From Endomychus coccineus (taxonomy: Eukaryota; Arthropoda; Insecta; Coleoptera; Endomychidae), in the NCBI GenBank assembly GCA_958510875.1, contig OY294070.1, positions 13,569,631 through 13,633,630 of the forward strand: a DNA stretch of 64,000 nt, given 5' to 3'. Positions 42,515 to 46,639 of the stretch are shown piece after piece. Every line of letters begins with the position of its first letter. Positions within the stretch are counted from its first letter, which is position 1. The notes under the pieces were generated by a model that saw only the letters and a program-made list of their open reading frames with translations, made no database searches and had not been told where the DNA came from. The position numbers and the translations under genes are program-made.

Positions 42515-42820
42515 GTCATTTTACGAAAAATGAGGCGATGTTCGTAAAAATTTGATAGAGGTTGGGGAGGTGGAAAAAGTTGTTTCTTGTGATAAGAGTA
42601 ATGATATTCCAGAATTTCTACAAGAAATATTTGGTGCAACCATCCCAACAATCCCAAAAACTGGTTTCTGGCCCTTTTTTAGGTCAGTTTTGAAGTTTAA
42701 ATTTTTTTCAACCCCTTAGACTTCTGACTAAGGTTTGGGAGTTGGACCCTTTTATTATCCATGTTCAAGAAAGCTTCGGTTCAAATTTGGAGTGTTTGCA
42801 ATCATTACTTCCCCTACAAT

Positions 42821-42822
<2 letters not shown>

Positions 42823-42902
<80 letters not shown>
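42823..42902. repeat. (AT)n microsatellite, left arm
   Basis: About 40 perfect AT dinucleotides. Open frames across it encode Tyr-Ile repeats and are not genes. Confidence 0.95.
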
Positions 42903-42906
<4 letters not shown>

Positions 42907-44090
42907 ATGCTTTCTTGGTATATTGGTTCGTATATATACTGAAAATAAAATGAAATAAAAATTCTTTTTGACGTTTATTGCCTTTATAAAAATGTGAATT
43001 AGTGTTTCCATGTAATTTAGAAAAGAATAGATGATTTCGATTAATGAAATGCGTCTGCAGCCGACTTGTGTTTTAAGATCCAATTAAAACATTGTCGAAA
43101 CGTCAAACAGAATTTTTATTTCATTATCAGTATATATACGAACCAATATACCAAGAAAGCATACAAATATTACAAATGGTTCAAGAATATCAATAAAAGA
43201 ATATATATGTATATATATATATATTTGTATGTTTTCTTGGTATATTGGTTCGTATATATACTGATAATGAAATAAAAATTCTGTTTGACGTTTCGACAAT
43301 GTTTATTGCCTTTATCAAAATTGTTAATTGAATTAGTGTTTCCACGTAATTTAGAAAAGAATAGATGATTTCGATTAATGAAATGCGTCTGCAACAATAC
43401 AAAAATTTTAAATATTGGAACAAACGACAACAAACGTTTGATATTAGAATCTATTCAAATTAAAAAGAACAATTGTGTAAATGACAAAATAGATTCCAAT
43501 CTTTCGAAACTGTACAATAATCTAATTCAAACTTAACAAAATTTTATTAATTTGAAGTGCCACTTTCCATTTGTCTATTTAAAATTCAACCTAAAAAAGA
43601 TGAAGTATTATTTAACTATGACACTATAGAGTAACAATTTTGAGGTTAAATTCCATAGAATTATCTTAAACTTGAATAGTTGATTATGATAGATCTGAAA
43701 TGCTTATCATAGAATAACTAATTCATACAATAATTCATAGATATTTATAATTGTACAATCTTGGAATGTCTTGTATTTAATCAAATTCAATCTATTTCAA
43801 ATTGTAGTTAGCCATACATTACTCTTTCACACACAACCGATCCAATGTTTTCTGCAGTTTTAGTTGGATCTTAAAACACAAGTCGGCTGCAGACGCATTT
43901 CATTAATCGAAATCATCTATTCTTTTCTAAATTACATGGAAACACTAATTCAATTAACAATTTTGATAAAGGCAATAAACATTGTCGAAACGTCAAACAG
44001 AATTTTTGTTTCATTATCAGTATATATACGAACCAATATACCAAGAAAACATACAAATATTACAAATGGTTCAAGAATATCAACAAAAGA
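42903..44090. pseudogene. PLE terminal repeats and C-terminal ORF fragment in the left arm
   Basis: A segment of about 165 bp (CTTGGTATATTGGTTCGTAT, GACGTTTCGACAATG, TTTATTGCCTTTATCAAAAT, ending GAAATGCGTCTGCA) occurs four times: 42903-43068 (+), 43084-43175 (-, partial), 43226-43395 (+) and 43889-44090 (-). GTCGAAACGTC with an adjacent TTGATAAAGGC is typical of PLE termini. Between copies, 43400-43545 reads NDNKRLILESIQIKKNNCVN, the C-terminal LILESIxIKK end of GIY-YIG PLE proteins, followed by 3' UTR. RT is absent. Confidence 0.65.
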
Positions 44091-44157
44091 ATATATATAT
44101 AACGTTTTTCGGGGTAAAAATTAAAATTGGGCTATTTTGATCAAATCTTCACCAAAT

Positions 44158-44707
44158 TGGATGAAATTTGGTGTCAAAGTAGATCATGGTGACCATAATA
44201 AGTGATCCAAAGATGAAGTTAAAATTTCCGATAGTTTTGATAAAAATCCAAATTTGGGAGATTTGGCCCAAATTTTGAAGATGCCCCCAATTACGGCAAA
44301 CAAATCGCTAAGTACTCTTTTTGGGCTCAAATTGAAGGTTATTTTATATAGTTTGACGTGGTATAACTTGTTTTATAAGATCAGCCCATTTCTTGGCCAT
44401 TTACGGCATATATATATGCGCGCGCAGATTTCCAAGCTTTATTGTATTATAATAGGATTTTATCACTATAATATTGTTCTTAGAGTATAGACATGGCTTT
44501 TTTTGCATATATATGTGAGAAAACATATACACTATTTATTTGAGGTCCGCTTGTGACATAGTGAAATTTTTTTTACTACACGTATTAATTATTATAGAAT
44601 ATATAGGTATATACAACATTACCTGCGCTTTTTCTAATTCAAGACGCGACAAAAATTTACTTCTGATGATGTGGACCACGCCTACTGATATTATCAGATA
44701 AAAATTA
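44158..44707. repeat. Inner palindrome arm, left
   Basis: Pairs with 45513-46062. It holds GCATATATATATGCGCGCGC near 44408-44427 and TCTGATGATGTGGACCACGC near 44662. No coding. Confidence 0.85.
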
Positions 44708-44805
44708 GCTAGCTGCTGCAGCAGTTTGTCGATTACAACAAGCAGAAAAAGAAAATACCAATAATAGAGTCCAAAAATCATACATATAATGATAAACATA
44801 ATAAC

Positions 44806-45033
44806 TATCTAGCCGCAGTGATACAATATTTGATCGCCGAAGTTTTGGAATTAGCCGATAACGCAGCCCGGGACAATAAAAAAACAAGAATCATCCCCCG
44901 TCATCTGCAATTGTCCATCCGCAAAGACGAAGAATTGAACAAGCTATTGTCAGGTGTGACAATCGCTCAAATCGGAGTCTTGCCTAACATTCAAGCAATA
45001 TTGCTGCCCAAGAAAACCGAAAAGAAAGCATAA
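44806..45033 (+). pseudogene. Histone H2A C-terminal fragment (captured)
   Basis: An open frame starts at TAT (44806) directly after the left 70-bp repeat: YLAAVIQYLIAEVLELADNA, then RDNKKTRIIPRHLQLSIRKD, then NKLLSGVTIAQIGVLPN and the LLPKKTEKK end, with a stop at 45031-45033. This is the H2A histone fold from the middle of helix 2 to the natural C-terminus, about 75 of 124 residues. No stop or frameshift interrupts it. Several normally invariant residues differ (ME to IQ, LAG to LAD, RND to RKD, AQGG to AQIG), so it has drifted away from a functional histone. There is no start codon of its own, promoter or N-terminal tail. H2A would package DNA with H2B; this fragment cannot. Confidence 0.9.
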
Positions 45034-45060
45034 ATCAACTCGTACAACGAGAGTATCATC

Positions 45061-45076
45061 GGCCCTTCTCAGGGCC
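45061..45076 (+). promoter_or_regulatory. Histone mRNA 3' stem-loop
   Basis: GGCCCT-TCTC-AGGGCC forms the canonical 6-bp stem and 4-nt loop of replication-dependent histone mRNAs, 28 bp after the H2A stop and followed by ACAAAT. GAACGAAAATCC about 13 bp downstream is placed where a U7 snRNA-binding element would be. The stem is perfectly paired although the coding part has drifted. Confidence 0.9.
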
Positions 45077-45512
45077 ACAAATAGTACTGAACGAAAATCC
45101 TAGAACCGACTGTCTATGTACCCTACAACAGTAAAACAAGCAGAAAAAGAAAATACCAATAACGGAGTCAAAAAATCATACATATAATAATCAATATAAT
45201 AACTAATTACATATTACAGATAAAGAATATAGTACTGTTTTTTTTTAATAACTAACCTATATATATTTATTCATCTACCTGATCTCCAATTGAACTTTCA
45301 TTATTACCTCATAGTTATTTTTTTTTTGAATATTTTTAAGTTAATTTGATGAGATTATTGAATTTAATAACGTAGAAATTATTAACAGCCGATTAAAATT
45401 ATAGATTAGACATTATTAGATCGGAAAATCGGACATTCTCTTAAAACAGAAAAATACAAAAAAAAAATCATAAGATACACAATATTTGTACCTGTCATTG
45501 TTTTATAAGAAT

Positions 45513-46062
45513 AATTTTTATCTCATAATATTGGTAGGCGTGGTCCACATCATCAGAAGTAACTTTTTGTCGCGTCTTGAATTAGAAAAAGCGCAAGTGA
45601 TGTTGTATATACCTATATATTCTATAATAATTAATACGTGTAGTAAAAAAAATTTCTCTATGTCACAAGCGGACCTCAAATAGATAATGTATATATTTTC
45701 TCACATACGTATGCAAAAGAAGCCATATCTACACTCCAAGAACAATATTATAGTGATAAAATCCTATTATAATACAATAAAGCTTGGAAATCTGCGCGCG
45801 CATATATATATGCCGTAAATGGCCAAGAAATGGGCTGATCTTATAAAACAAGTTATACCACGTCAAACTATATAAAATAACCTTCAATTTGAGCCCAGAA
45901 AGAGTACTTAGCGATTTGTTTGCCGTAATTGGGGCCATCTTCAAAATTTGGGCCAAATCTCCCAAATTTGGATTTTTATCAAAACTATTGTAAATTTTAA
46001 CTTCATCTTTGGATCACTTATTATGGTCACCATGATCTACTTTGACACCAAATTTCATCCAA
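45513..46062. repeat. Inner palindrome arm, right
   Basis: Reverse complement of 44158-44707 with scattered substitutions. Confidence 0.85.
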
Positions 46063-46066
46063 AAAC

Positions 46067-46067
<1 letters not shown>

Positions 46068-46162
<95 letters not shown>
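46068..46162. repeat. (AT)n microsatellite, right arm
   Basis: Mirror of 42823-42902; nearly pure AT, with one GTATAT interruption near its end. Confidence 0.95.
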
Positions 46163-46639
46163 TCTAGGGGAAGTAATGATTGCAAACACTCCAAATTTGA
46201 ACCGAAGCTTCCTCAAACATGGACAATAAAAGGGTCCAGCTCCCAAACCTTAGTCAGAAGTCTAAGGGGTTGAAAAAAATCAAAACTTCAAAACTGACCT
46301 AAAAAAAGGCCCAGAAACCAGTTTTTGGGATTTTTGGGATGGTTGCACCAAATATTTCTTGTAGAAATTCTGGAATATCATTACTCTTATCACAAGAAAC
46401 AACTTTTTCCACCTGCCCAACCTCTATCAAATTTTTACGAACCTCGCCTCATTTTTCCGTAGAATGACTCCATTAAATGTGAAGTGTGTTCCGGGAATAC
46501 GAGGGGAGCGTCAACATATTCTCGGTTGGACATAGATCCAGGTATTGTGACGGGTCAAATTATTGATAGCACACAAACAAATATCGAAGACTTCACACTA
46601 TGGATACAAGTACACACTTCAACACCATAAATAAGAAAT

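What the first reader, a model, noticed from the sequence alone, without database searches (positions are those of the whole stretch)
42515..46468. Palindromic element that captured part of a histone H2A gene
Outer arms (42515-42822 / 46163-46468) and inner arms (44158-44707 / 45513-46062) form a nested inverted repeat of roughly 0.9 kb per side. The core contains H2A coding sequence plus its 3' processing signal. Fold-back and MULE-type elements are known to carry host gene pieces, but I know of no described long-arm element carrying a replication-dependent histone 3' end. If the family is multicopy it could spread histone 3' ends through the genome.
Basis: partly seen in the sequence, partly recalled or inferred. 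Interest (0 to 1): 0.75.

Follow-up and report, generated by a model that had tools for sequence, protein, structure and literature searches.

The report
Jumping gene carrying stolen histone end
This stretch is one of many copies of a cut-and-paste jumping gene that long ago swallowed the end of a histone H2A gene, with its RNA-processing signal, and has since spread that fragment around the genome, where it seems to decay as a passenger.

Summary
Window 42510-46475 is a 3,966-bp DNA transposon with long terminal inverted repeats (TAGTGG...CCACTA) and a 3-bp target duplication, AAT; all 11 copies with both ends and flanks in hand show 3 bp. The genome holds 414 matching termini and 71 H2A junction sites, about 65 loci. 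The H2A piece (320 bp, 93% identical to the host array gene) runs through stop codon and stem-loop to about 45 bp beyond, so its source was genomic DNA. The 21 copies examined share breakpoints and a 3-bp deletion: one capture. A coding copy shows it in the 3'UTR of a gene for an XPG/FEN-like nuclease; least derived copies show it between 79-bp direct repeats. Nuclease plus 3-bp duplication points to AcademX, not fold-back or MULE. The window copy is an internal-deletion derivative; its arms are native repeats split by an (AT)n run and a nested palindrome. H2A decays neutrally. Bold, untested: the histone 3' end once gave transposase mRNA histone-type, S-phase processing.

The parts
42507..42509 (.). 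left target-site duplication AAT
   Evidence: 11 of 11 two-ended copies have a 3-bp duplication
42510..42818 (+). left terminal inverted repeat, outer part (degraded tip TAGTGGTCAT)
   Evidence: 95% over 302 bp to the right outer arm
42819..42902 (.). (AT)n run inside the left terminal repeat
   Evidence: sequence
42903..44101 (.). separate nested palindromic repeat (PAL) lodged in the AT run; not part of the transposon proper
   Evidence: own inverted arms at 99%; more than 100 bp of it in 7 of 20 other copies
44102..44707 (+). left terminal inverted repeat, inner part (pairs with 45512-46062 from 44157 on)
44708..44764 (+). remnant of the last codons of the transposon's nuclease gene, ending at stop TAA 44762-44764 (..SRKRKYQ*)
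   Evidence: same end as the 393-aa frame of the coding copy L022
44734..44807 (+). upstream copy of the direct repeat flanking the H2A piece (79 bp in the least derived copies); its last 3 bp overlap the H2A match
   Evidence: 91% here; 79 bp, 97%
44805..45121 (+). captured histone H2A 3' end: about 75 codons, stop 45031-45033, and 3' flank beyond the stem-loop
45061..45076 (+). histone 3' stem-loop GGCCCTTCTCAGGGCC (Rfam hit spans 45056-45101)
45090..45100 (+). purine-rich downstream element AACGAAAATCC, as in the host gene
   Evidence: its role in processing is recalled, not tested
45122..45131 (+). short filler between H2A and the downstream direct repeat
45132..45205 (+). downstream copy of the direct repeat
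45206..45511 (+). rest of the transposon gene's 3' flank
45512..46062 (-). right terminal inverted repeat, inner part
46063..46162 (.). (AT)n run inside the right terminal repeat
46163..46475 (-). right terminal inverted repeat, outer part, ending ..GACTCCATTA (family: ..GACTCCACTA)
46476..46478 (.). right target-site duplication AAT

Best explanation
A DNA transposon of the Academ superfamily (AcademX-like: XPG/FEN-like nuclease, 3-bp target duplication, inverted repeats of about 1 kb beginning TAGTGG) once suffered a break just downstream of its nuclease gene. Repair copied 320 bp of a host H2A gene and its 3' flank into the gap, leaving a 79-bp duplication of transposon sequence on both sides, a 3-bp overlap (CTA) at one junction and a 9-bp filler at the other. 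The chimaera was amplified. A coding copy still shows H2A in sense orientation in the 3'UTR. Short copies, the window's among them, arose by internal deletion of the nuclease gene; they keep the inverted repeats and are presumably moved in trans. H2A now decays as a passenger. Shown: mobility, ends, duplication length, copy numbers, shared capture in the copies examined, genomic donor, position in the coding copy, neutral decay. Inferred: repair mechanism, trans-mobilisation, superfamily name.
For: 3-bp duplication in 10 of 10 two-ended copies with no 2-, 4- or 5-bp match, against 2 of 90 between copies, and in an eleventh, L019. 414 termini, control 0; 71 right H2A junctions, control 0. Same breakpoints, shared 3-bp deletion and nested mutations in 21 of 21 copies examined. 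H2A match runs past the stem-loop. Coding copy with terminal repeats, nuclease frames and H2A in the 3'UTR. Direct repeats of 79 bp around H2A. Homologue model matches Rad2/XPG/FEN1, best E 2.0e-07, 55 matches at E <= 0.001. Passage: AcademX makes 3 or 4 bp duplications, AcademH 9 or 10, related to nuclease and helicase. A 60%-identical relative ends in the same CCACTA. Neutral decay.
Against: No Pfam match at its cut-off for the three nuclease-gene frames scanned, none for relatives P0006 and P0012, only weak unrelated ones for P0048, and no PDB sequence relative (best E 2): XPG kinship rests on the fold of one homologue (34% identical), not on the element's own protein. The paper that defines AcademX/AcademH was not held and no Academ reference sequence could be aligned. 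The coding copy is interrupted and its frames are split; no unbroken copy of this exact family was seen among the 105 places scored of 2,586 candidates, so trans-mobilisation is inferred. The left end of the relative could not be fetched, so its duplication was not read.
Confidence: 0.82

Rival explanations
1. Fold-back or Mutator-like (MULE) element that captured H2A.
For: Long inverted arms around a gene fragment; a paper on the fold-back element Tetris says most fold-backs seem to belong to Mutator and reports 8-10 bp duplications (PMC4079207, passages seen).
Against: Target duplication of 3 bp in 11 of 11; the coding copy's frames carry no Pfam transposase domain in the three scanned and a relative folds as an XPG/FEN nuclease.
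Confidence: 0.05
2. The H2A piece is a processed retrocopy that landed inside the transposon.
For: It has direct repeats on both sides, as a retrocopy would.
Against: It includes about 45 bp downstream of the stem-loop, which mature histone mRNA lacks (processing site recalled); 79-bp flanking repeats are far longer than usual for such insertions (recalled); no A tail at the junction.
Confidence: 0.03
3. The transposon first jumped into an H2A gene, and the H2A piece was swept inside by later rearrangement (end bypass or nested copies) rather than by gap repair.
For: The histone array is a large target (150 of 150 scored H2A places lie in it).
Against: H2A lies between two copies of one internal 79-bp transposon segment, not next to transposon ends; none of the 71 right-junction sites falls inside the array at C3:74.81-76.50 Mb (nearest C3:74424605).
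Confidence: 0.1
4. Assembly artefact.
For: Long inverted repeats and AT runs are hard to assemble (general knowledge).
Against: Same parts, same junctions and own 3-bp duplications at many separate loci on several contigs.
Confidence: 0.01

Closest known systems
Academ superfamily, AcademX lineage (Kojima; passage in PMC10045372)
   Same: 3-bp target duplication, nuclease-type protein, terminal inverted repeats
   Different: carries a host histone 3' end in the 3'UTR; very long inverted repeats containing an (AT)n run; no reference protein could be compared
Pack-TYPE / transduplicating DNA transposons of plants (PMC8903248: search listing; PMC13317346: passages)
   Same: short non-autonomous copies that carry a host gene fragment between inverted repeats
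   Different: apparently an animal genome (organism not identified), Academ-like ends, capture already present in a coding copy, fragment includes a replication-dependent histone processing signal
Fold-back elements (Tetris, PMC4079207, passages; TFB1 of Chironomus, seen only as a reference title there)
   Same: long inverted arms, variable middle; TFB1 by its title also touches histone genes
   Different: 8-10 bp duplications in Tetris against 3 bp here; TFB1 is by its title found in histone genes, whereas here the histone piece is inside the element
Replication-dependent histone H2A genes of the host array
   Same: 93% identity over 320 bp including stem-loop and downstream element
   Different: only the 3' part, no promoter or N-terminus, decaying

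Membership tests
Academ (AcademX) | 3-4 bp target-site duplication | tested here: met
   3 bp in 11 of 11 two-ended copies; defining length from a passage of PMC10045372
Academ (AcademX) | encodes an XPG-type nuclease (the passage says nuclease; XPG is recalled) | tested here: met
   a homologue of the 393-aa frame is modelled like Rad2/XPG/FEN1; caveats: no Pfam match, no PDB sequence match, and the model is of P0006, 34% identical
Academ (AcademX) | no helicase (separates it from AcademH) | tested here: inconclusive
   no helicase in the three frames scanned; the N-terminal frames of the coding copy were not scanned
Academ (AcademX) | groups with Academ reference proteins in a tree | not testable with these tools
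   no Repbase sequences; AcademH paper not held
Mutator / MULE and Mutator-type fold-back | 8-11 bp target-site duplication (partly recalled) | tested here: not met
   3 bp in 11 of 11
Tc1/mariner | TA target duplication | tested here: not met
   with TAGTGG as tip, 3-bp duplications outside it match in 10 of 10; the uninterrupted relatives of L015's flank diverge exactly before TAGTGG
Helitron | no terminal inverted repeats, no target duplication (recalled) | tested here: not met
Gene-capturing non-autonomous DNA transposon (Pack-TYPE-like) | host gene fragment inside terminal inverted repeats with target duplication | tested here: met

The most novel reading that the evidence does not exclude
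The captured histone 3' end was not only a passenger: in the coding copy it lies in sense, with the stem-loop 301 nt after the nuclease gene's stop codon, and may have given the transposase mRNA a histone-type, poly(A)-free 3' end and so S-phase-restricted expression. The possible poly(A) hexamer of the upstream direct repeat reads GATAAA in 17 of the 19 copies that keep it and AATAAA in none, while the downstream repeat has AATAAA in 15 of 21, which would favour read-through into the histone signal. Against it: one inherited base change explains the hexamer; the stem-loop is no better kept than its surroundings (15 of 21 copies; mean 15.2 over all 16-nt windows); and the coding copy's downstream element has two changes.
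Probability: 0.08. Interest if true: 0.85.

Novelty: new variant of a known kind. Interest (0 to 1): 0.52.

Why it matters
DNA transposons that carry host gene pieces are well known in plants, and Helitrons are known for it in insects too (PMC6544945, passages). I know of none in the Academ group and none carrying a replication-dependent histone 3' end, and five searches of the held open-access library showed none in their listings (listings, and passages of a few papers; most subscription papers are not held). The family gives an unusually clear record of a capture: one event in the copies examined, an order of later changes, a coding copy, and junctions with a 79-bp duplication. It places about 65 copies of a histone 3' end in one genome, which could affect 3' ends, small RNAs against H2A, or annotation. 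It makes a link between transposase expression and S phase directly testable.

Tried and rejected
TA target duplication was my first reading of the ends; the table of two-ended copies replaced it by TAGTGG tips plus 3 bp. Fold-back/MULE: rejected on duplication length. Retrocopy: rejected because sequence beyond the stem-loop is present. Selection on the H2A protein: no sign; changes private to single copies are 64 non-synonymous (5 of them stops) to 20 synonymous, ratio 3.20 against 2.28 expected with transitions weighted 4. Conservation of the stem-loop: not above background. Shared flanks among fetched loci to find empty sites: only L015 was useful. Genome search with the inner arm did not complete, so arm-only copies are not counted. 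Searches with the C-terminal peptide and with the acidic-tail DNA did not complete; the nuclease-frame search took their place. Organism not identified. Ten paper searches: no histone-capturing DNA transposon in the listings; the AcademH paper was asked for by DOI and by PMC id and is not held.
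Full report
What is there. Window 42510-46475 holds a 3,966-bp element flanked by AAT on both sides. Its inverted arms are real: inner arms 551 nt at 96%, outer arms about 302 bp at 95%. Between outer and inner arm lie an (AT)n run on both sides and, on the left, a separate nested palindrome (about 42903-44101). More than 100 bp of that palindrome is found in 7 of 20 other copies (8 of 20 at more than 40 bp), so it is not a fixed part of the element. The middle, about 805 bp, contains an H2A 3' end with an Rfam histone stem-loop.

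It is a mobile family. The middle segment gave 612 first-look candidates in the 906-Mb genome, of which 40 were scored; the outer arm gave 1,177, of which 40 were scored. I fetched 20 further copies of the middle with about 4 kb on each side. All 20 hold inner arm and core, and 18 of 20 show the outer arm on at least one side within the stretch fetched; the two without are L013 and L022, and for L022 the outer arms lie further out. A terminus pattern allowing 3 mismatches finds 414 sites, 210 on one strand and 204 on the other, against 0 for the reversed control (the listing of places is truncated, the counts are whole).

Ends and target duplication. At first the TA before GTGGAG looked like a TA duplication. 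With TAGTGG as the tip, 10 of 10 copies in which both ends and flanks were in hand (window, L011, L016, L017, L018, L020, L021, L026, L029 and the coding copy L022) have a 3-bp direct duplication; 0 of 10 match at 2, 4 or 5 bp, and 3-bp matches between the left flank of one copy and the right flank of another occur in 2 of 90 pairings. An eleventh, L019, whose left tip carries a deletion, has AAC on both sides. Uninterrupted relatives of the sequence beside L015 diverge exactly before TAGTGG, which makes TA part of the element.

The histone piece. It spans window 44805-45121 and matches a host H2A gene over 320 bp at 93%. It starts at about codon 50 of H2A, runs through the stop codon, the stem-loop and the purine-rich element and ends about 45 bp beyond the stem-loop. 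Because mature histone mRNA ends a few bases after the stem-loop (recalled), the donor was genomic DNA. Of 535 candidate places for H2A in the genome 150 were scored, and all 150 lie at C3:74.81-76.50 Mb. In the window copy and all 20 fetched copies the piece has the same two breakpoints (one copy, L016, has an internal deletion) and lacks the same 3 bp; shared and nested substitutions split the 21 into a least derived class of 5 (L021, L023, L025, L026, L028), a class of 3 (L022, L024, L027) and a most derived class of 13 that includes the window copy (classes drawn by eye). That is one capture followed by amplification. These copies were chosen by the core, so their possession of H2A says nothing about the family as a whole; in six loci chosen by the outer arm, none has H2A in the 6 kb read, though not all of these stretches cover the whole element. 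Genome-wide the right H2A junction occurs at 71 sites, control 0, which I merge by hand to about 65 loci (six loci have two sites). The left junction occurs at 22 sites, control 0; in part of the other copies that side is rearranged.

Where the capture sits. The least derived copies keep a longer centre: an acidic frame ending SSTTSRKRKYQ and a stop, then H2A between two 79-bp direct repeats (97%), with a 9-bp filler on one side and a CTA overlap on the other (overlap and filler read by eye). One further copy, L022 with its neighbours L043 and L044 (C6:37969974-37983801, duplication TAA), is 13.8 kb long and carries the full series: outer and inner terminal repeat, an inverted stretch of core 804-612, several protein frames on the same strand, the 393-aa frame with that acidic tail, then H2A in sense in its 3'UTR, then the right repeat. 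It is interrupted by other insertions and its frames are split; I read them as they stand. Besides L022, 11 of the other 19 core-picked copies keep 70 to about 290 bp of this gene's end next to the H2A piece; the window copy keeps 57 bp (44708-44764). L031, which shows no H2A, keeps about 315 bp of the stretch between the left repeat and the first protein frame. So the palindromic copies are internal-deletion derivatives of the coding transposon. In the least derived class the left arm also contains the last 26 bp of the H2A piece in inverted form, so that arm was extended after the capture, by copying from the other side (inference).

What the protein is. The three frames of the gene that I scanned have no Pfam match at its cut-off, and the 393-aa frame has no sequence match in the PDB (best E 2). 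A protein search listed 80 relatives at E <= 0.001, among them proteins of ants, a bee, wasps, beetles and a limpet, some named Tesmin/TSO1-like CXC, protein asteroid or 5'-3' exonuclease by their sources. In an alignment of 41 of the 80, two aspartates of a GEDIDLLVLL stretch and most of an HAxxGCDxT stretch are invariant, followed by a cysteine-rich tail. An AlphaFold2 model of the relative P0006 (mean pLDDT 71, block means mostly above 90 over residues 200-470) matches Rad2, XPG, FEN1 and T5 exonuclease in the PDB, best E 2.0e-07, 55 matches at E <= 0.001; TM-scores are modest (0.22-0.33 by query in the 50 rows shown) and rmsd values large. In the window's genome, four open frames of 953 aa at 60% identity and several of 1,499 aa at about 35% exist (105 places scored of 2,586 candidates). 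Two of the former (L045, L046) are 99% identical over 7.3 kb and end in the same CCACTA; L045 has inverted repeats of at least 437 bp at 98%. Their left ends lay outside what I could fetch.

Naming. Kojima 2023 (PMC10045372, passage read) states that AcademX makes 3 or 4 bp and AcademH 9 or 10 bp duplications and relates this to nuclease and helicase. That Academ is marked by an XPG nuclease I recall from Kojima 2020, which was not held. Nuclease fold, 3-bp duplication and inverted repeats all fit AcademX; a tree with reference proteins could not be made.

How it works. Shown: a DNA transposon family with these ends, an H2A capture that sits in the 3'UTR of its nuclease gene, amplification in coding and deleted form. 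Inferred: a break downstream of the gene was repaired by copying from an H2A gene, then rejoined with duplicated ends (79-bp duplication, micro-overlap, filler); the short copies move with nuclease supplied by others. Neutral fate: changes private to single copies in the H2A frame are 64 non-synonymous, including 5 stops, to 20 synonymous (3.20 against 2.28 expected), 8 of 21 copies have an early stop or frame break and a ninth, L009, has lost the stop, and the stem-loop is intact in 15 of 21, the same as an average 16-nt stretch, mean 15.2. The window copy itself keeps the frame open. Rfam at gathering score found the stem-loop in 6 of the 13 other copies given to it (L010, L011, L014, L016, L020, L021; not in L009, L012, L022, L024-L027), in the host locus L040, and in the window.

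The bold reading. In the coding copy the histone 3' end is in sense, its stem-loop 301 nt after the nuclease stop codon. The upstream direct repeat carries AATAAA in 0 of the 19 copies that keep that stretch (GATAAA in 17), the downstream one in 15 of 21. A transcript would thus meet the histone signal before a clear poly(A) signal. If used, transposase mRNA would be made like a histone mRNA. But one inherited change explains the hexamer, the coding copy's downstream element has two changes and it falls below the Rfam threshold, and the copies show no special conservation of the stem-loop. I give this 0.08.

Noticed in passing
window 42903-44101 (PAL); also in L011, L012, L014, L018, L019, L024, L028: A separate palindromic repeat with 99% inverted arms sits in the (AT)n run of the terminal repeats, on either side in different copies: the AT run seems to be an insertion hotspot.
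   Followed up: partly
L009, L012, L014, L024, L026: Tandem units of about 473 bp, each with a tRNA match (12 tRNA hits in 5 of the 13 copies given to Rfam), lie in the region of the terminal repeats in these copies.
   Followed up: no
G000:C3:74.81-76.50 Mb: Very large histone array: all 150 H2A places scored (of 535 candidates) lie here, with blocks in opposite orientation.
   Followed up: no
G000 C2:129505163, C2:140788353, C3:114887601, C5:44977240 and others: Similar open copies of related nuclease transposons (953-aa and 1,499-aa frames): perhaps recently active members of the same superfamily.
   Followed up: partly
window 17122-17607 + and 17803-18348 -: A frame with a hAT-type dimerisation domain and a frame with a reverse-transcriptase domain, remnants of other mobile elements.
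   Followed up: no
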